A model generated the notes under the pieces. It was not told where the DNA came from. It saw only the letters and a program-made list of their open reading frames with translations, and did not search any database. Both the position numbers and the translations under genes were made by a program. 64,000 nucleotides of DNA. Origin: a virus. The stretch is from positions 124,001 to 188,000 of IMG/VR virus record IMGVR_UViG_3300032562_000004, one strand, 5' to 3'. Positions 19,535 to 49,310 of the stretch are shown here, piece after piece (position 1 is the stretch's first letter; every line of letters starts with the position of its first letter).

Positions 19535-19584
19535 ATCTCCTTTTGTTTACGGTCGTTACTCTGACCTTGGACCCAAGTACTTCT

Positions 19585-19955
19585 GACTTTGTGATAGGGT
19601 TTGTGGAACGATTGTTTCTGTTGCCAAGTACAATCGCTGGAAAACTCCGACAGGTGTTTAGGCTGCCAGTGCGTAACTTTCATCGTTAGCGTTTAATTTA
19701 ATTTGCTTCTTCGACCGAGTGTCCTCAATCCTAACGGCTTTCGCTTTGCCGATTCTCCATTGTTCTAATTATTGCCATGTCGAAACCGGTCGCCCACATC
19801 AAAAACATATTAGCTGGTAATACTCACTCCATTAAAAACCTGCCGTTGTGACTGGTTCACTAATATGCTTATGGTGTAGGCGGGGAGAATCGAACTCCCG
19901 TCCACAACAACTTTCAAACAACTTCAACGAATGTGTATCAATAATGGTCCTAATC
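19585..19955 (-). ncRNA. ssrA: tmRNA 1, circularly permuted (two-piece)
   Basis: On the minus strand the acceptor piece comes first. It has a T-arm with GGGAGTTCGATTCTCCC and ends CGCCTACACCA (CCA end at 19872). A roughly 74-base intervening segment follows, then the coding piece, beginning GTGGGCGACCGGTTTCGACA at 19797. GTGGGCG pairs with CGCCTAC and keeps a G3-U70 pair, the alanine identity element. The tag ORF encodes ANDESYALAA and stops in a hairpin loop. A GATTGT/ACAATC hairpin follows. The intervening segment is closed by CATATTAG/CTAATATG. Outer ends are approximate. Confidence 0.88.
19658..19690 (-). other. tmRNA 1 tag reading frame (ANDESYALAA)
   Basis: Resume codon GCT at 19690, ten sense codons, TAA at 19658. 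The LAA ending is the canonical ClpXP/ClpAP recognition end, so proteins rescued by this tmRNA should be degraded. Confidence 0.88.
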
Positions 19956-20052
19956 TATAACTAGTATAAACATCGCCATTATTAAATCTAACTTGGCCCC
20001 AATGAAAAATTCCACCACGGTACCAATGTGTCTTATATACTCTAATCTTCAT
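19924..20052 (-). CDS. Small protein overlapping tmRNA 1 precursor
   Basis: 42 codons, MKIRVYKTHWYRGG... ending GPLLIHIR. It is rich in aromatic and basic residues, with an NGDVYTSY segment that looks protein-like. A GGTGG/GGTCGG purine stretch precedes the ATG. The 3' third overlaps the predicted 5' part of the tmRNA acceptor piece. It is either a real leader gene read through into the tmRNA, or chance. No family is recognised. Confidence 0.45.
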   Translation of the reverse strand: MKIRVYKTHWYRGGIFHWGQVRFNNGDVYTSYRLGPLLIHIR

Positions 20053-20090: not shown

Positions 20091-20119
20091 ATTATATCAT
20101 TATATTTATGCTTTGGCAA
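20091..20119 (-). promoter_or_regulatory. Sigma70-type promoter for tmRNA 1
   Basis: TTGCCA, 17 bases, TATAAT on the minus strand, just inside the 3' end of the exonuclease gene. It directs transcription into the small ORF, tmRNA 1 and probably the hydrolase-gp33-gp59 genes. Confidence 0.65.
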
Positions 20120-20768
20120 CATTTTTTTGGTAATAATCAATCGCTTTCACCAATCCAGGTATGTGGTCATCGGTTTTCTGCTGAAATACCAATGGTGCTT
20201 CATTCTCTACCGCCATGATAATTACCAGATTATCAATTGGTGTACCAATCATTTCTTCATACATCAAAGCATATGCGGATGTTTGCCAAAAGTAATCTTC
20301 AATGTGTGCCATTTCTTTTATTTTCTTTGATGTTTTAAAGTCAATAACAGATAATACACCATCAAATTCACCAATACAATCCACACGACCTGCCATGCCT
20401 AATTGTTTAGACCATAATGCACATTCTTGATAATGAATATTGTTGATACGATTTAATTCTGGCTTAATTGATTGGAACATCTCCAACGCATCAGGCATGA
20501 TTGTGCCTAACTTCTCATTGTTTAGATATCTCTCGCACAAGGTGTGTACATTGGTGCCACGACCTGTTGCTTGTTTAGAGATTCTATTGGCTTCTGCTTC
20601 ACCAACTCTCTTACGCCATTTCATGATACCCTCTTTCTTTTGGGCGCCAATCACAGTAGTAACAGACGGCAATTTAGAACCATCAGGTAGAGTATAGTAC
20701 CTCATACCATCAGGAAAGGTTTCAGATTTTAAATCAATGAGGTCTTTTGGTGGGCAAAAAGTAAACAT
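20106..20768 (-). CDS. PD-(D/E)XK exonuclease (MGME1/RecB-nuclease-like)
   Basis: 220 residues. The nuclease core is visible as MAGRVDCIGEFDGVLSVIDF followed by KTSKK: Asp in GRVD, then D-x-K in IDFKTSKK, preceded by RGTNVHTLCERYL. This is the pattern of mitochondrial-genome-maintenance/Cas4-like exonucleases common in T4-like phages. It probably processes DNA ends in recombination or replication. The start overlaps the stop of the hydroxylase gene. Confidence 0.83.
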   Translation of the reverse strand: MFTFCPPKDLIDLKSETFPDGMRYYTLPDGSKLPSVTTVIGAQKKEGIMKWRKRVGEAEANRISKQATGRGTNVHTLCERYLNNEKLGTIMPDALEMFQSIKPELNRINNIHYQECALWSKQLGMAGRVDCIGEFDGVLSVIDFKTSKKIKEMAHIEDYFWQTSAYALMYEEMIGTPIDNLVIIMAVENEAPLVFQQKTDDHIPGLVKAIDYYQKNVAKA

Positions 20769-21544
20769 TATTTTTTATTTCTATAATTATCTAATTCAGC
20801 TTCAAACTTAGCTGCTTGTTCAGGAGTAATAACAGTAGCATCAATTCGTTTTCTCAACTCATCAGCATAATTCTGTAATTGTGTAATATCACCCTCATAG
20901 TGAAAATTCTTTGTAACATGTTTTGTATCATAGGCATCAATTAATAGATTATATCTATCAGTATCTCCATCATTTCTAATTTGATGCCATTTATTTACCC
21001 ATAAGATGTAAGCAGAACCATCAGCAGGCATATGTAGATTTTCACCTTCACAAATGAATACACATTTTGGATTTGTCCATAACGGAATATGAATTCGTGC
21101 CATGTATTCTTGTTCAGGTCCATCAGAATGTACCACAGATTTTGAACCAGCTTTTAGATTAGTAATTCTAGCACGCCTGGTGTAGAAACCCAATTCATCC
21201 AATTGGTCTAATACTTTCTTAATTTCACCGACACAACCTTGTGTTGGGTTTTTATATTCTAATGAATGTGCAATATCCAAATATTTTAGTGTTTCATAGT
21301 TATTGGCACCTTTGGGAAAGAATACTTCTTCTAATGTAGTACCTTCTTCATTCTGAAAGAAAGCAAACCCATCACGCCAATCACCAGTACGACTTTGTAA
21401 ACTGTAACCACCAAATCCATTATATTGTGGGGTTTCATATTCTTTACCTTGAATACATTCTCCACCCAATGTAAATACACTACGTTTAACTTCTTCTCTT
21501 AACTTTTCAATGTCGACTTTGAAATCTAATTTTTCATAGAACAT
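20768..21544 (-). CDS. Aspartyl/asparaginyl beta-hydroxylase-like oxygenase
   Basis: 258 residues. The metal/2-oxoglutarate core is SVVHSDGPEQEYMARIHIPL (H-x-D), then NKWHQIRNDGDTDRYNLLID (distal His and Arg). This order is that of the Asp_Arg_Hydrox double-stranded beta-helix family, Fe(II)/2-oxoglutarate enzymes that hydroxylate side chains in proteins or peptides. It is the last of four oxygenase-like genes below the radical SAM gene, with one-base overlaps to its neighbours. Confidence 0.8.
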   Translation of the reverse strand: MFYEKLDFKVDIEKLREEVKRSVFTLGGECIQGKEYETPQYNGFGGYSLQSRTGDWRDGFAFFQNEEGTTLEEVFFPKGANNYETLKYLDIAHSLEYKNPTQGCVGEIKKVLDQLDELGFYTRRARITNLKAGSKSVVHSDGPEQEYMARIHIPLWTNPKCVFICEGENLHMPADGSAYILWVNKWHQIRNDGDTDRYNLLIDAYDTKHVTKNFHYEGDITQLQNYADELRKRIDATVITPEQAAKFEAELDNYRNKK

Positions 21545-22128
21545 TATAATACACCTTTCAACATTTCAATGGTACTCTTATCAAATGTACCCAAATTGGA
21601 AGTTAATGATATTCTTGGTTGATTAGACCTGTTTTGTTCTACACTATGTAATACAAAACCTGGAAAGAATACTAACTTACTTTCTTTAGCTTTAATACGA
21701 TTAAACTTAGAACCATTCACACCATCGTTACCTGAATCCCAATCACAACCATTTCTAGGATCAATTAATAACAGGTCACCACAATTCTCAGGTGCTTGTA
21801 TATAATAAGTCATAGCAATCTTTGGTCCACCGTGTCCGTGTATGGCCATAGATTCACCTGGATTATTATAATTTACCCAACCTCTGTTGTGCCAATATTC
21901 AAAACCATCAACATAGTTGTGTGCCACATAATCATAAGTTTGTTCTTTGATTACCTTTAATGTATATTCTCTAAGTTCATTTAACCTTTTAGAATCGTTT
22001 GTCCAAACATTTGATGTTGGTTTGAATGATGTAATTTCATTCCACAATTCAATATTAAATTGTCTATCAAAATCAGTTTGTATCTCCCAAACAGGAGTAA
22101 CCCACATATCAGTTTTGTTTATAATCAT
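21544..22128 (-). CDS. 2OG-Fe(II) oxygenase-like protein A
   Basis: 194 residues. The core is GWVNYNNPGESMAIHGHGG, then MTYYIQAPENCGDLLLIDPR, and LVFFPGFVLHSVEQNRS with RISL. This is the H-x-H/D, DPR, FPxxLxHxV, R pattern of the phage 2OG-FeII_Oxy family. The substrate is unknown. It shares an N-terminal W.(T/S)P(V/I)WE(I/V)(Q/T)TD motif with the paralog at 22648, so the two arose by duplication. Confidence 0.8.
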   Translation of the reverse strand: MIINKTDMWVTPVWEIQTDFDRQFNIELWNEITSFKPTSNVWTNDSKRLNELREYTLKVIKEQTYDYVAHNYVDGFEYWHNRGWVNYNNPGESMAIHGHGGPKIAMTYYIQAPENCGDLLLIDPRNGCDWDSGNDGVNGSKFNRIKAKESKLVFFPGFVLHSVEQNRSNQPRISLTSNLGTFDKSTIEMLKGVL

Positions 22129-22667
22129 AAATGACCAGTTTCTTTCAACATATCACACACAGCAGCATAATCATAAGTTGCTGTAGCCAGAGTAATTGCT
22201 ACTCTATTTTTAATTCCTGATAATGGTGTAACTGAATGAGGTTTTGTTACATCTAAAATGTATACATCACCTGGTTCAGCAATGTAGTTACCATTAATCA
22301 ATAAATCTTCTTTATCATAAATGAAACCGTGTCCTGTTTGGTTCTCGATTCTGTGTTTCTTTGGGTCATCATTCTTAAATGTAAAGAACTCTGTTACACA
22401 ATTATCCGTTTCGACATAAAAGTTAATTGTTACCAAATCACAATCAGTATGTGGTGGTATTACTGTATTAATCTCCATCAATGATACACAGAACATATTA
22501 CGATATCGTTCAGGAATATATTCTATCACAGATTTATAATCTTGGCAATCCACATTAAGATATTTGATACCTTTGAACTCACCATCTACCACTTCACCGA
22601 ATGTTACTTGTTCAGTCAATGGTTTGTAACCAGTAATTGTGAATGGTTTATTTAATTTTTGGAACAT
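22125..22667 (-). CDS. 2OG-Fe(II) oxygenase/cupin-like protein
   Basis: 180 residues. It has VIPPHTDCDLVTINFYVE (H-x-D), GHGFIYDKEDLLING, and EPGDVYILDVTKPHSVTPLSG followed by NRVAITLAT (distal His and Arg). These fit a non-heme iron dioxygenase fold that differs from the two paralogs flanking it. It overlaps both neighbours, so translation is coupled. The substrate is unknown. Confidence 0.72.
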   Translation of the reverse strand: MFQKLNKPFTITGYKPLTEQVTFGEVVDGEFKGIKYLNVDCQDYKSVIEYIPERYRNMFCVSLMEINTVIPPHTDCDLVTINFYVETDNCVTEFFTFKNDDPKKHRIENQTGHGFIYDKEDLLINGNYIAEPGDVYILDVTKPHSVTPLSGIKNRVAITLATATYDYAAVCDMLKETGHL

Positions 22668-23322
22668 ATTCTTTAATCTTCACTAAATCATTTACCCAAC
22701 TCTTTAACACCACAGCATTAGGACTATCTTTCTCAATTTTCAATTTCATATCGGTAGATAATGAGATTCTTAAATCATTAGACTTGTTCTCTTGTACCTC
22801 ATGCATCAGATAGGCAGGAAAGAATACCAATTGGCCTGCCTTTGGTGTTATTGTTTTAATCTTTGCTGTTGGATTCTCCGTGGTGTATTCACCATCAACA
22901 ATAACAAGTTCACTAGTATCAATGAATGATATATCACCAGAGCTCTCTGGCACTTTAATATAATAAGTTGCCGCAAGTGCTGCATCAGAGTGTGCATGCA
23001 TCTCAATACGTTGACCAGGTTCTTTTACATTGACCCAACCAAATAGAAATTCAAATTGAATCTCCAATCCTTCTACTTCTCTTGCCTCACGAACATAATC
23101 GTTAGCATTCTCTACTACTAATTTGTGTATTGTTCTTTTGAGTTTTTGTATGTGTGGTAAATCGTAGTCCCATAAATCATCTTTGGGACTACTATCTACA
23201 CCAGTTTGAATATTTTTTGCTATTAGATAGATTTCATCCAGTAGTCTGTCGTTAAACTCTGAATCTAAATCTGTTGTTACTTCCCATATTGGTGATTTCC
23301 ACCATGTATTCACTTGAACCAT
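22648..23322 (-). CDS. 2OG-Fe(II) oxygenase-like protein B
   Basis: 224 residues. The core is FGWVNVKEPGQRIEMHAHSD, ATYYIKVPESSGDISFIDTS, then GQLVFFPAYLMHEVQENKS and RISLSTD. HxHxD, distal His and Arg are all present, as in the phage 2OG-FeII_Oxy proteins. It is paralogous to the gene at 21544, with a similar N-terminal VNTWWKSPIWEVTTDLDSEF. Fourth gene below the radical SAM enzyme in transcription order. Confidence 0.8.
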   Translation of the reverse strand: MVQVNTWWKSPIWEVTTDLDSEFNDRLLDEIYLIAKNIQTGVDSSPKDDLWDYDLPHIQKLKRTIHKLVVENANDYVREAREVEGLEIQFEFLFGWVNVKEPGQRIEMHAHSDAALAATYYIKVPESSGDISFIDTSELVIVDGEYTTENPTAKIKTITPKAGQLVFFPAYLMHEVQENKSNDLRISLSTDMKLKIEKDSPNAVVLKSWVNDLVKIKEYVPKIK

Positions 23323-23332
23323 TTTGTAAGGT

Positions 23333-23650
23333 TTACAGTCCTTTTTTTAACTTCCATGCTTCATATTGTTGTACAATTTCACACTTATGATTCCAATCAA
23401 TACCATCATGTGAGTTTAATTTGGCTGTATGGTACTCATCACCATATACAATATGTTCTAAAATAGGAATGCCATCATGAAAGATTGCTTCTAAGATATC
23501 AGCATAATCATGTAACATCTGAAACATTCTATCTTTTTTATCTTCAGGCAGGTTCAACATATCTGCACCCATCTGATTATCAAAATAATAGATTACATGC
23601 TGACGATATAGTTCAGTATCTTCTATTGTGATTTGATTGGTACCAGGCAT
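23333..23650 (-). CDS. Small protein in oxygenase cluster, unknown
   Basis: 105 residues, acidic and helical (EDKKDRMFQMLHDYADILEAIF, shortened). It begins MPGTNQITIEDTELYRQHVI and overlaps the end of the Cys-rich gene by 28 bases. I recognise no domain. It may be a partner or carrier in the modification cluster, inferred from position only. Confidence 0.6.
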   Translation of the reverse strand: MPGTNQITIEDTELYRQHVIYYFDNQMGADMLNLPEDKKDRMFQMLHDYADILEAIFHDGIPILEHIVYGDEYHTAKLNSHDGIDWNHKCEIVQQYEAWKLKKGL

Positions 23651-24519
23651 TTTAATTTTCCTTTAAAACTATTTAATTTTGTAATTGTAGATGCTGTGTA
23701 ATAACTAAAGAACAAGAAGAACCAAATAGTATATACTGTTGGTAATCCATGTTTACGTTTTGATTTAGCGATTCTTGGAATCATATCAACAACACGGCAG
23801 ATAGGACGGCCAATATTCATTAGAATACGACCCATGAAATTATCACGTTCAACAGCACCCATTAAGTATGCCATGTGTTGTGACCATGGTTGACCAATCT
23901 TGTTAGCCATATCAATCATGGCTTTCTGTTGTGCCTTCTGGCGTTCTTCTTTATTCTTAATCCACACCATGAAATCAGGACCTTTGCCTTCCATCCATGC
24001 TGTTACGATACGAGCCCAACGAATATAACCACGATATACCGATTTATCTGTTTTGCGTAACATCTGACCATAGGCTTGGTCGGCTGCCCATATATTGTGG
24101 CTCATCATACCAAGGTCAAACAGTTTAGCACAAACAATCTTAGAACAGTTACAAGCACAGTTACAATTATATGATGTTTGGCCTGTGGTACAGTTATAGG
24201 TACAAGCACAGTTGCAATTATTTTGTAACCAAGATTGTGAATCACAGTTGGTACAATTTACTGTACCTGAAATATAGCAGTTGTTGCATTGGATGTTACC
24301 ACAGTTACAATTGGATGTACAGTTACTATTGTTACAATTTCCTTGAGTGGTATTTTGAAAATAAGTCAAACCTTTAAACGAATTCATGTTTGGTGATGAT
24401 GGACTAATTGATGGCAAAACATAACCATTGAGAAAATTCAATGAAGAACTATACGTTGTGCCAATACCCAATTCGTTATTAACATCACTAACTGCAATTT
24501 GTCCTGTAGGTGTGGTCAT
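23623..24519 (-). CDS. Cys-rich putative virion protein, candidate modification substrate
   Basis: 298 residues. The N-terminus TTPTGQIAVSDVNNELG is a phage minor-structural-protein signature. Residues 62-130 carry 17 cysteines in CNC, CxxC and NCNCACNC patterns with many Asn. The C-terminal half is basic and Met/Trp-rich (WARIVTAWMEGKGPDFMVWI) and ends in an aromatic hydrophobic helix (YTIWFFLFFSYYTAS). A TATAAATA late box lies about 30 bases upstream. It is directly downstream of the radical SAM/SPASM gene and followed by oxygenases. It could also simply be a metal-binding tail protein. Confidence 0.72.
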   Translation of the reverse strand: MTTPTGQIAVSDVNNELGIGTTYSSSLNFLNGYVLPSISPSSPNMNSFKGLTYFQNTTQGNCNNSNCTSNCNCGNIQCNNCYISGTVNCTNCDSQSWLQNNCNCACTYNCTTGQTSYNCNCACNCSKIVCAKLFDLGMMSHNIWAADQAYGQMLRKTDKSVYRGYIRWARIVTAWMEGKGPDFMVWIKNKEERQKAQQKAMIDMANKIGQPWSQHMAYLMGAVERDNFMGRILMNIGRPICRVVDMIPRIAKSKRKHGLPTVYTIWFFLFFSYYTASTITKLNSFKGKLKCLVPIKSQ

Positions 24520-24530
24520 TTATTTACTCT

Positions 24531-26000
24531 TTAAACGTTGATTTCAGTATTTATATCGTCAGCCAACCGTGATTTACCATATACTTCCACACCATCCAAT
24601 TCGCCAATTTTTTCACTAACCACCTTGATTGGAATAATCTTTTTGACTGGTTTCTCTTTATGTTCAAAGATAGTACCAAAGATATCTTGGCGTTCCAATG
24701 GTAACTCATCATTTTTAATGAGTGTTGGAATATAACCAGTCATTCGTTCTAATGCCACAGCAAACAATGCCACATTATCTGAATAAGAATTGGCACAGGA
24801 GATGTCCCAAAACTTCTTATCCAAGAACATACAGGCACCTTTACAGAGGTGTAATACTGGACAAGAACCACATTCTTTACGATTACTCCAATGCGTGGAG
24901 GTCTTAATCTCTACATTGTCCATATCAGTCATGTGGCCACCAAGATGAGACTCTCCATTCTTGGAGATTTCAAGGGAACTGACATTCTGGCAGGTCATTA
25001 CATTACCTCGTAAATCAACCGCCAATACATGTTCGTCATCCATACCACATTTCTGACCTAGGTACTTAGAATTGGCATGAGATAATACTGCTTGAGTAAA
25101 TCCATCAATCTTACCTAATTGGCCAACAAAACCAATTTGACCACCTGTGCTAAAGAAGTCAGCAAAGGCCGTTCTGCGATACTCAAAATGTTCTTGTAGT
25201 GTCTGTAATGAATTGGTAATACCTTCCTCATCATACGCATCAACAATACCACCTTCACCTAATTTAACATTAGGATCACCAGTCATATTAACAAACCATT
25301 CATAAATTTCTTTACGAGATTTATTTTTACTATTCATCATTGGATTGAATGAGATACCTTTTTTCAACCTACTCATCATACGATAGAAGCCAAGAATAAC
25401 TTTCTTCTTTTCTGGATCATCAAAAGGATCAGGACCACGAACAGATTGTCCAGGTCCATCGTGTGAGATTGATACAGAAAAATTATACTTCATCAACCAA
25501 TCACAAATTTCATCTGTAAGAATAGAACCATTGGTGATGATAGAAAATTGTGGTAGACGATTCCAATGTTGGAACTTATCTACGATTGCCTCAGTCAAAG
25601 GCTTTAATGTTTTCCAATAAACGAGTGGTTCACCACCCCACAATTCAATCTTCAAACCTTTTTGTTCATCAAATTCTAGAGTATCAAACATCTCCATAAA
25701 AGCATCAATATCTTTTTTGGAAGTTTCTGGCGCTCGTTCAACAAACTTCTGTGAACAGTAATCGCAAGAGTAATTACAACTCAAACCTAATTGAATTTTA
25801 AGTAATTGTACTTCTTTGGATTTTTTTAGTGGACGGTCTTTGTCGAATGATTTATATTCAGTCAACTGTTGATTGTGAATTGTGCCTTCAGGAAATTCAT
25901 ACACGATTCCATCTTCACTTTTGAGTGTGTTGGTTTCATTATCATAGTAGAAGATTTTTTTATCATCAGCACTACGTTCAGCATGTATTTCAAATAGCAT
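24531..26000 (-). CDS. Radical SAM/SPASM enzyme (peptide-maturase type)
   Basis: 489 residues. The radical SAM cluster motif is LGLSCNYSCDYCSQKF (Cx3Cx2C). It is followed by ELWGGEPLVYW, a GGEP SAM-binding motif, and SIITNGSIL. The C-terminal SPASM region shows CGMDDEHVLAVDLRGNVMTC, ECGSCPVLHLCKGAC and a final Cys at DISC, enough ligands for auxiliary Fe-S clusters. Such enzymes modify peptides or proteins (sactionine, anSME-like chemistry). The adjacent Cys-rich gene and oxygenases suggest the substrate is encoded here. A phage MetK about 31 kb away could support SAM supply. Confidence 0.88.
   Translation of the reverse strand: MLFEIHAERSADDKKIFYYDNETNTLKSEDGIVYEFPEGTIHNQQLTEYKSFDKDRPLKKSKEVQLLKIQLGLSCNYSCDYCSQKFVERAPETSKKDIDAFMEMFDTLEFDEQKGLKIELWGGEPLVYWKTLKPLTEAIVDKFQHWNRLPQFSIITNGSILTDEICDWLMKYNFSVSISHDGPGQSVRGPDPFDDPEKKKVILGFYRMMSRLKKGISFNPMMNSKNKSRKEIYEWFVNMTGDPNVKLGEGGIVDAYDEEGITNSLQTLQEHFEYRRTAFADFFSTGGQIGFVGQLGKIDGFTQAVLSHANSKYLGQKCGMDDEHVLAVDLRGNVMTCQNVSSLEISKNGESHLGGHMTDMDNVEIKTSTHWSNRKECGSCPVLHLCKGACMFLDKKFWDISCANSYSDNVALFAVALERMTGYIPTLIKNDELPLERQDIFGTIFEHKEKPVKKIIPIKVVSEKIGELDGVEVYGKSRLADDINTEINV
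24548..24555 (-). promoter_or_regulatory. T4-type late promoter for Cys-rich gene
   Basis: An exact TATAAATA on the minus strand, inside the 3' end of the radical SAM gene and about 30 bases before the Cys-rich ATG. It suggests late (virion-phase) expression of the Cys-rich protein, separable from the enzyme gene. Confidence 0.6.
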
Positions 26001-33773: not shown

Positions 33774-33802
33774 ATTATACTACACTTGAGGTTGGTTGGC
33801 AA
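33774..33802 (-). promoter_or_regulatory. Sigma70-type promoter
   Basis: TTGCCA, 17 bases, TATAAT on the minus strand, overlapping the 3' end of the AAA+ gene and reading into the winged-helix gene. Confidence 0.6.
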
Positions 33803-34973
33803 CCTCGGAAGTGGTAGCAATGGTACTCGTATTCGCTGGTGATTCTACTGATGCATCCACTTTTGAATACAAATCTAAAAATGCCATTTTGGTTTCTTCG
33901 TCAAAACGATTCACACACAATGTAATGGCCTTCATTCTATCTTTAAAGATACCAAATGCTTTGGCAATATGTACCAATCGGCGAGTAGAGATAATCTCGT
34001 CAGTAGCACCTTCTTGGTATGATTTACGAACCACATCAGCCCATTGGCAAAGATTCTCAACAAAATCTTTATCATCAAGCAATGGTCCTAAAATCTTTTT
34101 CTCGGTCTTAGCATCAGGGAATTCCTGCTCTACCGTAATCGGGAATCTTTCCAAAAATGCATCATCTAATATCTGTGATAGATATTTGCCTTCATCACTA
34201 CCACGACCTTTGGTATTTGCCGTTGCAATGATATTAAATCCATCTTTTGGATAAACCATTTCACCAGATTTCTTATTGTAATGTGGTTTGCCTTCCATGA
34301 TGCCTTGCAAACACATCAACTTATTAGAACCACGGTCTACTTCGTCAATCAACAATACTGCGCCACGCTTCATAGCAATAAGCACAGGACCATCACGATT
34401 GACCACATTACCATTCACCAATGTAGGACCGCCAAGTAGGTCACTCTCATCAGTTTCGACAGAGATATTCACACGGATACATTCACGATTCAACTCCGCA
34501 CACACCTGTTCGACCATCAAGGTCTTGCCGTTGCCTGATAGACCAGTAACAAATATCGGATAGAATGATTTGCTACCAATGATATTCTTCATATCTTTAT
34601 AGAAACCAAATGGCACATAATCAGGCCATTTCTGTGGTACAGCAGGTTCAGAATCATCTACCAGTTTTGGTTGACGGAACTCCAACACTTGTGCTGGTTG
34701 TGCATATGCCATTTCAGTTTCGGGTTCAATAACTTTACAATCAGCATCGTTTAACTTTACAATACTTTCTTTTAACTTTACAATCTTTTCACCTGATGGT
34801 GGCACTTTGTATTGACCACGGTCATAACGATATTGTGATTTTGTAACCAGCCAATATGGGTATGGTGCATCTGATTCATTACACACTTTGGTAATATCAT
34901 CACGATTCAAAATTGGTTCTGAACCAAAGATTGATTCAGCTGCTACAATAAATTGCTTTGCATTTTTATTCAT
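33780..34973 (-). CDS. AAA+ ATPase, CobS/MoxR-like
   Basis: 397 residues. A variable N-terminal 120 residues is followed by an AAA+ core: Walker A FVTGLSGNGKTLMVEQ, Walker B AVLLIDEVDRG, sensor FNIIATANTKGRG, and arginine region DDAFLERFPITVEQEF. CobS-like AAA+ proteins are frequent in T4-like phages of aquatic bacteria, where their role is unclear; cobaltochelatase or chaperone-type remodelling are both proposed. A second AAA+ gene lies just upstream, with one small gene between. Confidence 0.85.
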   Translation of the reverse strand: MNKNAKQFIVAAESIFGSEPILNRDDITKVCNESDAPYPYWLVTKSQYRYDRGQYKVPPSGEKIVKLKESIVKLNDADCKVIEPETEMAYAQPAQVLEFRQPKLVDDSEPAVPQKWPDYVPFGFYKDMKNIIGSKSFYPIFVTGLSGNGKTLMVEQVCAELNRECIRVNISVETDESDLLGGPTLVNGNVVNRDGPVLIAMKRGAVLLIDEVDRGSNKLMCLQGIMEGKPHYNKKSGEMVYPKDGFNIIATANTKGRGSDEGKYLSQILDDAFLERFPITVEQEFPDAKTEKKILGPLLDDKDFVENLCQWADVVRKSYQEGATDEIISTRRLVHIAKAFGIFKDRMKAITLCVNRFDEETKMAFLDLYSKVDASVESPANTSTIATTSEVANQPQV

Positions 34974-48616: not shown

Positions 48617-48742
48617 ACTAATAGTTCCTTTATGTTTATACTACTGAACAAATATTTATTGTTTTTTTGCGTTGGCCTGCAAAAATTGCTAGGTTTTGGC
48701 ATATTTTTAAGTTTAATATACGCATATAATGAAGTCAAAAGA

Positions 48743-48762
48743 ATAGGGGTCGAAGCCCCTAT
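48743..48762 (-). terminator. Rho-independent terminator after tmRNA 2
   Basis: ATAGGGG-TCGAAG-CCCCTAT, 7 bp, followed on the minus strand by TCTTTTG. It ends the cold-shock/tmRNA 2 transcript. Confidence 0.8.
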
Positions 48763-48769
48763 CTGTTAT

Positions 48770-49105
48770 TTTCTGTTTCGACGGATAACTCCGCAAAGCA
48801 GTGATTAAACTGCTAATGTTTGGCGTTGTGCTGTACGAGCAGAGAAACGAATTCCCTTACCTGAAACAGTTACTTCGCCTTTAGATGCGTTTGCATTTAA
48901 GTTTTTCGCTTGATTTACAGTCATCGCCTACTGTGTTGCCTCTTTCATTATCTCACCATGTCGAAACCTTGTCATCCCCACTGAAACATACTACAGCTTT
49001 TGGCCTCGCTACCGATAACTCGGTTCGGTAATATGCTTCGGTGGAGATGCCGGGAATCGAACCCGGGTCCACAGCGCCTTCACTACGAAGGAATTACAAC
49101 AATTC
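48770..49105 (-). ncRNA. ssrA: tmRNA 2, circularly permuted, with an atypical tag
   Basis: The acceptor piece comes first: T-arm CCCGGGTTCGATTCCCGG, then CATCTCCACC (discriminator A at 49042; CCG, not CCA, encoded). About 60 bases later the coding piece begins GGGGATGACAAGGTTTCGAC at 48979. GGGGATG pairs with CATCTCC and keeps G3-U70. The intervening segment is closed by GAAGCATATTAC/GTAGTATGTTTC. The tag has 29 codons and its stop lies in a GCAG/CTGC hairpin, as in standard tmRNAs. Outer ends are approximate. Confidence 0.87.
48805..48894 (-). other. tmRNA 2 tag reading frame, 29 residues ending LAV
   Basis: After TTAAAT, the resume codon GCA begins ANASKGEVTVSGKGIRFSAR and continues TAQRQTLAV before TAA. 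The tag is about three times the usual length, basic, and ends LAV rather than LAA. An ATG lies in frame 24 bases before the resume codon. Confidence 0.78.
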
Positions 49106-49106
49106 T

Positions 49107-49310
49107 TTACAGCGGAAGAATATTTGATGCTTGCTTGCCTTTAGGGCCTGCCACTACATCGAATGTTACCGCTTGATTCTCTTTTAAACTCTTAAAACCA
49201 TTTGTGCTAATTGCGGAAAAATGTGCAAACAATTCCTCACCACCAGCATCGGGGGTAATAAATCCAAACCCTTTTGCATCATTAAACCACTTTACTTTAC
49301 CTGTTGCCAT
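49107..49310 (-). CDS. Cold-shock domain protein
   Basis: 67 residues, a complete [21 protein letters not shown] (RNP1-like KGFGFI), ELFAHFSAI (RNP2-like), then [17 protein letters not shown]. It binds ssRNA/ssDNA and melts RNA structure. It has its own promoter and a GGAAG site, and the stop codon lies just before the tmRNA 2 acceptor region, so both are probably on one transcript. Confidence 0.93.

What the first reader, a model, noticed from the sequence alone, without database searches (positions are those of the whole stretch)
20768..26000. Radical SAM/SPASM enzyme, Cys-rich virion-like protein and four oxygenases in one phage cluster
Seen: contiguous same-strand genes, mostly overlapping: rSAM/SPASM (Cx3Cx2C, GGEP, SPASM Cys), a 298-residue protein with 17 Cys in 70 residues, a small protein, three 2OG-Fe(II)-type proteins and an Asp/Asn hydroxylase-like protein. 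Known: rSAM/SPASM and 2OG oxygenases mature RiPPs and proteins. Inference: a phage-encoded post-translational modification pathway acting on the Cys-rich protein, which has a phage structural N-terminus and could be displayed on virions. I know of no described system of this layout.
Basis: partly seen in the sequence, partly recalled or inferred. Interest (0 to 1): 0.88.

Follow-up and report, generated by a model that had tools for sequence, protein, structure and literature searches.

The report
Radical-SAM maturation of phage fibre tags
This bacterial virus carries a set of enzymes that probably chemically remodels an unusual asparagine/cysteine-repeat stretch on one of its own proteins; relatives of the enzyme sit beside tail-fibre genes ending in the same repeat in many unrelated phages, which points to an undescribed way of finishing the phage's host-grabbing fibre tip.

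Summary
In detail: seven same-strand, touching or overlapping genes encode a radical SAM/SPASM enzyme, a 298-aa protein with 17 Cys in 69 residues (13 of them preceded by Asn), a small protein, two PF13759 oxygenases, a third oxygenase-like protein and a PF05118 hydroxylase. The layout recurs in dozens of IMG/VR phages.

The main result lies outside the window. The same rSAM family sits beside proteins with an alternating Asn-Cys array in very different phages and prophages. Of 75 representative rSAM genes (80% identity) with full flanks, 68 have such a neighbour. Conversely, an unbiased scan for NCNCxCNC found the rSAM beside 31 of 32 usable coding hits. Outside the window lineage these are mostly tail-fibre-like proteins with the array at the extreme C-terminus, or just before an autocleaving Hint or S74 domain. 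2OG oxygenases co-occur in about half of the loci.

Best reading: an undescribed phage system in which an rSAM/SPASM maturase, often with 2OG oxygenases, modifies an (Asn-Cys)n tag on fibre or fibre-like proteins. Linkage is shown; chemistry (probably Cys thioethers plus Asn/Asp hydroxylation), virion presence and benefit are inferred. The window's protein is a derived form with a helical domain after the array.

The parts
24531..26000 (-). Radical SAM/SPASM maturase (489 aa), phrog_1802 family; predicted to modify the Asn-Cys array
   Evidence: Pfam 8.4e-9, phrog_1802 8e-65, full SPASM Cys set; AF2 pLDDT 89.6, top PDB folds anSMEcpe and CteB
23623..24519 (-). Cys-rich protein (298 aa), predicted substrate: N-terminal ~60 aa, Asn-Cys array (residues 62-130), helical C-terminal domain (129-292)
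   Evidence: 19 Cys, 17 in 69 residues; conserved in relatives; AF2: array disordered, 129-292 helical with block pLDDT mostly 80-91
24130..24336 (-). DNA encoding the Asn-Cys array (residues 62-130)
   Evidence: direct count
23333..23650 (-). Small conserved protein (105 aa), unknown; overlaps the Cys-rich gene by 28 nt
   Evidence: no Pfam/PHROG/NCBIfam hit; conserved beside the Cys-rich gene in most window-type loci
22648..23322 (-). 2OG-Fe(II) oxygenase OxyA (PF13759/TIGR02466)
   Evidence: PF13759 3.9e-22, TIGR02466 1.6e-20, phrog_81 3.4e-32
22125..22667 (-). Probable 2OG-Fe(II) oxygenase, divergent (Oxy_n)
   Evidence: no library hit; invariant H73xD75, H144, R155 in 16 relatives
21544..22128 (-). 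2OG-Fe(II) oxygenase-fold protein OxyB (PF13759); HGHGG in place of HxD
   Evidence: PF13759 2.2e-13, phrog_81 1.5e-25
20768..21544 (-). Aspartyl/asparaginyl beta-hydroxylase-like protein (AspH)
   Evidence: PF05118 4.7e-8, above cut-off; HxD...H...R motif visible in its sequence
20106..20768 (-). Exonuclease (PD-(D/E)XK); downstream neighbour, probably not part of the system
   Evidence: phrog_298 7e-76

Best explanation
The genes form a phage protein-maturation cassette. SHOWN: this rSAM/SPASM family is genetically bound to proteins that carry an alternating Asn-Cys array; outside the window lineage these are mostly tail-fibre-like proteins whose last residues are the array, or whose array is followed at once by a Hint or S74 domain (autocleaving families); 2OG-Fe(II) oxygenases accompany the pair in many but not all lineages. 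INFERRED: the rSAM enzyme, without a leader peptide or recognition domain, recognises the unstructured array in the newly made fibre or fibre-like protein and turns its cysteines into covalent links, most likely thioethers to neighbouring residues (Asn being the abundant partner). The 2OG oxygenases, including an Asp/Asn beta-hydroxylase homologue, then hydroxylate residues of the array or nearby. The product is a rigid, chemically unusual cap at the distal tip of a fibre, serving adhesion or stability. In the window's T4-like lineage the array carries an extra C-terminal helical domain added once in one clade; whether that protein is in the virion is unknown.
For: (1) Reciprocal linkage: 68 of 75 representative rSAM loci with full flanks have an array protein; 31 of 32 coding NCNCxCNC hits (>=80 aa, >=3.5 kb downstream) have the same-strand rSAM. 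Strand control: array ORFs on the opposite strand in only 3 of 77 viral and 2 of 79 genome loci, versus 62 and 61 on the same strand. (2) Independence from vertical synteny: carrier proteins, gene order and phage types differ (L320 beside central fibre J, L297 beside a tape measure, L345 beside a gp5-like lysozyme and collagen/S74 fibre, T4-like window); hosts or host bins are alpha-, beta- and gammaproteobacteria. (3) Array position: 98 of 161 array proteins have it within 10 aa of the C-terminus; 12 have a Hint-like domain right after it (two of these classed as 'other' by the script and recognised by eye); one has S74. (4) The window type is one clade (SH-aLRT 99) inside a larger clade whose other members end in the array. 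(5) 2OG enzymes: 40 of 75 representative loci; the label changes 10 times on the rSAM tree; the prophage c2ox family aligns with OxyA/OxyB at hhalign probability 99%. (6) Enzyme type: best NCBIfam match PapB, a Cys-thioether maturase; nearest folds anSMEcpe, CteB, TigE. (7) Negative control: the only INPHARED homologue of the window protein's C-domain, SynMITS9220M01, has poly-Pro/poly-Arg instead of the Cys array, and that phage gave no rSAM hit.
Against: No biochemical or proteomic data. 7 of 75 loci lack a recognised array (one, L260, has a Cys-alternating stretch almost without Asn). Oxygenases are absent from 35 of 75 loci, so they are accessory or serve other targets; PF13759-like enzymes are also common in cyanophages that gave no rSAM hit. 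The window protein's virion role is unproven; its N-terminus has no recognised relatives outside this family. PapB and anSME scores lie far below family cut-offs, so the chemistry cannot be read from homology. An O2-sensitive rSAM beside O2-requiring oxygenases needs explaining.
Confidence: 0.72

Rival explanations
1. The rSAM works like an anaerobic sulfatase-maturating enzyme: it oxidises array cysteines to formylglycine, giving the fibre tip reactive aldehydes rather than thioether crosslinks.
For: anSMEcpe is the top structural hit (E 1.7e-12) and is aligned over nearly the full length in NCBIfam (TIGR03942 2.6e-13); anSME acts on a large protein without a leader, as needed here; JWF's gene was deposited under this name.
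Against: PapB scores much better (1.6e-23). No CxPxR sulfatase motif in the array, which instead repeats Asn-Cys. Score 49.8 against a cut-off of 349.
Confidence: 0.13
2. The array is a metal- or cluster-binding or disulfide-bonded tip, and the rSAM is linked for another reason, for example modifying a different part of the fibre.
For: Dense CxC spacing resembles metal-binding peptides; tail spikes of known phages can hold metal at the tip (general knowledge).
Against: Linkage follows the array across unrelated carriers that share little else. Asn is 511 of the 735 residues that precede an array Cys, which metal binding does not require.
Confidence: 0.12
3. The array peptide is a RiPP-like product released from the carrier (toxin, superinfection exclusion or signalling factor) rather than a virion part.
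For: Enzymes are RiPP-maturase-like; some carriers are short (about 95-130 aa, e.g. L340, L314, L161); the window protein is not inside the tail gene block.
Against: Many carriers are long, and those tested from L285 and L292 match tail-fibre PHROGs; others lie directly after tail genes; no protease or exporter is conserved between carrier and rSAM.
Confidence: 0.12
4. Pure genomic hitchhiking: the genes sit together in a mobile fibre-exchange cassette with no biochemical link.
For: Fibre regions are known recombination hot spots; within the window clade even unrelated neighbours (exonuclease, DNA-binding protein) are syntenic.
Against: Reciprocal association of 31/32 and 68/75 across rSAMs that differ by up to about 60% in sequence, with carriers sharing little beyond the array.
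Confidence: 0.05

Closest known systems
Ranthipeptide maturase PapB / PapA (PMC9413430)
   Same: rSAM/SPASM enzyme, best NCBIfam match (1.6e-23); acts on repeated Cys motifs; tolerant of spacing
   Different: Score 83.5 against cut-off 340; PapA is a peptide with a leader and CX3D motifs bound through an RRE; here a fibre or fibre-like protein with NC repeats and no winged-helix RRE seen in the enzyme model
SCIFF maturase CteB (PDB 5wgg/5why)
   Same: Fold and two auxiliary clusters; Cys-rich ribosomal substrate
   Different: About 18% identity in the structural alignment; substrate and context differ; the SCIFF-maturase family cut-off is not reached (55 against 425)
QhpD (quinohemoprotein amine dehydrogenase maturation, TIGR03906)
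   Same: Second-best NCBIfam match; rSAM acting on a real protein subunit rather than a peptide product
   Different: Score 70 against 453; enzyme subunit substrate, not a virion protein
Anaerobic sulfatase-maturating enzyme (PDB 4k36-4k39)
   Same: Closest fold; protein substrate, no leader
   Different: No sulfatase or CxPxR motif; score 49.8 against 349
PF05118 aspartyl/asparaginyl hydroxylases and PF13759 2OG oxygenases of marine myoviruses
   Same: Same enzyme families in the cassette; AspH is described as a core gene of pelagimyophages (PMC7029224)
   Different: No tail-fibre array substrate has been proposed in the papers found here
rSAM gene cassettes in the host-recognition cluster of pelagimyophages (PMC7029224)
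   Same: Radical SAM cassettes reported as insertions in a tail-fibre region
   Different: That paper, where searched, names no substrate, no Asn-Cys array and no function; family identity not checked here

Membership tests
Radical SAM/SPASM enzymes | CX3CX2C cluster motif and radical SAM fold | tested here: met
   C75/C79/C82; Pfam 8.4e-9 above cut-off; AF2 model matches rSAM structures
Radical SAM/SPASM enzymes | SPASM CX9-15GX4C ... CX2CX5CX3CXnC | tested here: met
   C318-x13-G332-x4-C337; C377-x2-C380-x5-C386-x3-C390-x11-C402, all invariant in 39 sequences
PapB-type ranthipeptide maturase (NF047865) | NCBIfam curated score | tested here: not met
   83.5 against 340
PapB-type ranthipeptide maturase (NF047865) | Leader-bearing short precursor with CX3D motifs bound by an RRE | tested here: not met
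   Substrate candidate is a 298-aa protein or a fibre; enzyme N-terminus is three strands, no winged helix in the model. A separate RRE protein was not excluded
Anaerobic sulfatase-maturating enzyme (TIGR03942) | Curated score; sulfatase CxPxR substrate | tested here: not met
   49.8 against 349; no such motif in the array (sequence)
RiPP biosynthetic cluster | Modification, leader removal and release of a peptide product | not testable with these tools
   No conserved protease or exporter between carrier and rSAM; product unknown
PF13759 2OG-Fe(II) oxygenase | Pfam gathering score | tested here: met
   OxyA 79.0 and OxyB 50.9 against 27
2OG-Fe(II) oxygenase activity of 21544-22128 (OxyB) | HxD...H facial triad | tested here: inconclusive
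   HGHGG conserved in place of HxD
2OG-Fe(II) oxygenase superfamily, 22125-22667 | HxD...H...R motif and family score | tested here: inconclusive
   Motif invariant in 16 sequences but no Pfam or PHROG hit
PF05118 Asp/Asn hydroxylase | Pfam gathering score | tested here: met
   33.5 against 22.6
Phage tail fibre (array carriers in relatives) | Match to tail-fibre families and place among tail genes | tested here: met
   L285 and L292 match tail-fibre PHROGs, L302 weakly, L345's carrier not at all; neighbours are tail genes. Only a sample of carriers was tested
Virion protein (window Cys-rich protein) | Presence in particles or homology to a known virion protein | tested here: inconclusive
   C-domain resembles part of a DUF4815 phage protein and of SynMITS9220M01_028, which follows a fibre gene; no proteomics

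The most novel reading that the evidence does not exclude
Several unrelated phage lineages carry a general fibre-tip finishing system: an rSAM/SPASM enzyme, with optional 2OG hydroxylases, converts a C-terminal (Asn-Cys)n tag, exposed directly or after Hint or S74 self-cleavage, into a crosslinked, hydroxylated cap at the distal end of the tail fibre that binds the host or locks the fibre trimer.
Probability: 0.4. Interest if true: 0.95.

Novelty: categorically new. Interest (0 to 1): 0.87.

Why it matters
Radical SAM chemistry has not, in any paper I found, been tied to building a virus particle. If the linkage means modification, phages use RiPP-type chemistry on their receptor-binding tips, adding a hidden layer to host recognition that sequence-based fibre comparison misses. 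It gives hundreds of orphan phage rSAM genes a predicted substrate, makes a testable prediction (a mass shift on the last 10-20 residues of a named fibre), and offers C-terminal tag-directed crosslinking enzymes that appear to need no leader peptide. Only two cultured phages in INPHARED carry the family (Achromobacter phages JWF and 2-1), which may explain why it was missed.

Tried and rejected
Single-sequence viral scan with the JWF rSAM gave only 4 loci; replaced by the 24-sequence alignment A3. PDB sequence search with the Cys-rich profile gave only a chance hit; PDB fold search of its model gave nothing below E 1. Looked for a second copy of the N-terminal domain in this phage: none. AspH query against INPHARED: no match; OxyA: 148 records, nearly all marine cyanobacterial phages, at about 25% identity among those listed, so the oxygenases alone are not diagnostic. 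Rejected the idea that shared synteny among close relatives proves function: exonuclease and DNA-binding neighbours are just as syntenic in the window clade, so only cross-lineage counts are used as evidence. Literature searches for rSAM with tail fibres, and for the NCNC motif, found no description; the library holds open-access papers only. Campylobacter-phage and gut-phage rSAMs hit at about 25-31% identity were taken as other families and not pursued.
Full report
WHAT IS IN THE WINDOW. The finding's seven genes are real, on the minus strand, and touch or overlap: rSAM 26000-24531, Cys-rich 24519-23623, small 23650-23333, OxyA 23322-22648, Oxy_n 22667-22125, OxyB 22128-21544, AspH 21544-20768, followed by an exonuclease. 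The rSAM has the CX3CX2C motif and a full seven-Cys SPASM signature, and belongs to phrog_1802. Its best NCBIfam match is PapB, a thioether-forming ranthipeptide maturase, far below cut-off. The Cys-rich protein holds 17 Cys in residues 62-130, 13 of them preceded by Asn; chance is about 1e-19. The record is a 235,812-base IMG/VR virus contig with T4-type baseplate and gp32-like genes near the cassette.

THE CASSETTE IS CONSERVED IN CLOSE RELATIVES. An rSAM search of IMG/VR returned 80 loci at 67-98% identity. Nearly all whose contigs extend far enough carry the Cys-rich gene next to or near the rSAM, followed by the small gene, oxygenases and AspH in varying number and order. This alone is weak evidence, because the exonuclease and the DNA-binding protein often keep their places too.

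THE DISTANT RELATIVES ARE INFORMATIVE. The nearest cultured relatives, Achromobacter phages JWF and 2-1 (45%), have the rSAM two genes after a tail fibre that contains an NCNCDCNC-type array followed by a Hint domain. This suggested that the array, not the rest of the protein, is the partner. I tested it in both directions. First, an IMG/VR scan for DNA encoding NCNCxCNC, blind to the rSAM: of 32 coding hits in ORFs of at least 80 aa with at least 3.5 kb downstream, 31 have an rSAM of this family on the same strand; the exception looks like an antisense artefact. Second, rSAM-based scans blind to the array, in viral contigs and in bacterial genomes: 62 of 77 and 61 of 79 nonredundant loci have an array ORF on the same strand, 3 and 2 on the opposite strand. 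Several array-less loci are cut off just upstream of the rSAM. After clustering at 80% identity and requiring 3 kb on both sides, 68 of 75 loci have an array protein.

WHERE THE ARRAY SITS. In 98 of 161 array proteins it lies within 10 residues of the C-terminus; in 12 a Hint-like domain starts right after it (ten found by the script, two by eye), in one an S74 chaperone domain follows (marginally above Pfam cut-off), and the window type has a helical domain after it. Asn precedes 511 of 735 array cysteines, Ala 108, Asp 62. Of the carriers checked, L285 and L292 match tail-fibre families, L302 weakly and L345's carrier not at all; carriers lie behind central fibre J, tape measure or lysozyme/fibre genes. 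Hint and S74 are self-cleaving families, so in those contexts the mature fibre would also end in the array; that cleavage is inferred from family knowledge, not shown. Because fibre C-termini are usually distal, the tag would sit at the tip (inference). On the rSAM tree the window type is one clade (SH-aLRT 99) inside a larger clade whose other members end in the array; the Hint context needs at least three separate changes.

OXYGENASES. Between fibre and rSAM many prophage loci carry a 2OG-type protein (65 loci before clustering) that aligns with OxyA/OxyB at 99% probability, and others carry a PF13640-like or an AspH-like protein. A 2OG enzyme is found in 40 of 75 representative loci, with 10 changes on the tree, and in all window-type loci with full flanks. 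They are a recurrent but optional part. PF13759-type enzymes also occur in cyanophages that gave no rSAM hit, so some may serve other targets. A conserved unknown protein of about 270 aa lies between fibre and rSAM in 90 loci.

MECHANISM. The enzyme model (pLDDT 89.6) is closest to anSMEcpe, CteB, TigE, ChlB and SuiB. Its N-terminus is three strands, not a winged-helix recognition element, which fits direct recognition of the array. Cys-thioether formation is favoured because PapB, QhpD and SCIFF-type maturases are prominent among the family hits and because the carriers share Cys flanked by Asn; Cys-to-formylglycine is the main alternative. The target of the hydroxylases (Asn/Asp of the array) is a guess from PF05118 biology. 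None of this chemistry is shown.

WHAT IS NOT KNOWN. Whether the window protein is in the virion. Its C-domain resembles part of a DUF4815 phage protein and of a Synechococcus phage protein encoded after a fibre gene; in that Synechococcus phage the Cys array is replaced by poly-Pro/poly-Arg and no rSAM was found, a single but apt negative control.

LIMITS.

Noticed in passing
19567-19966 (-) and 48714-49131 (-): ARAGORN calls two tmRNA-like genes; the first has a plausible tag ANDESYALAA. The window also has 26 tRNA genes.
   Followed up: no
L002:6669-8519 (SynMITS9220M01_028): Cyanophage homologue of the Cys-rich protein's C-domain has a long poly-Pro run followed by eight Arg where the Cys array would be.
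   Followed up: partly
L269:7413-8138, also L008, L020, L021, L023, L027: A fatty-acid desaturase-like gene (PF00487 in L269) lies between rSAM and Cys-rich genes in several relatives.
   Followed up: no
L100:2383-2754 (-), L137:211-582 (-): Short proteins with CQxC repeats ending in NCNCDCNCNCS beside more distant rSAM genes; they look like RiPP precursors of another kind.
   Followed up: no
L114, L127: Short proteins ending in a CNCNCNC stretch beside one to four distant rSAM genes; a possible separate array-rSAM lineage.
   Followed up: no
L354: In Polynucleobacter necessarius the rSAM open frame is short (about 190 aa) and the array is interrupted (NCNCDRNCGC), as if both decayed together.
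   Followed up: no
cluster c1, e.g. L225:2875-3711: Unknown ~270-aa protein family between array fibre and rSAM in 90 loci; no Pfam or PHROG hit for the representative. Possible fibre chaperone or recognition factor.
   Followed up: partly
33780-34973 (-): Porphyrin-biosynthesis (CobS-like) ATPase, phrog_249.
   Followed up: no
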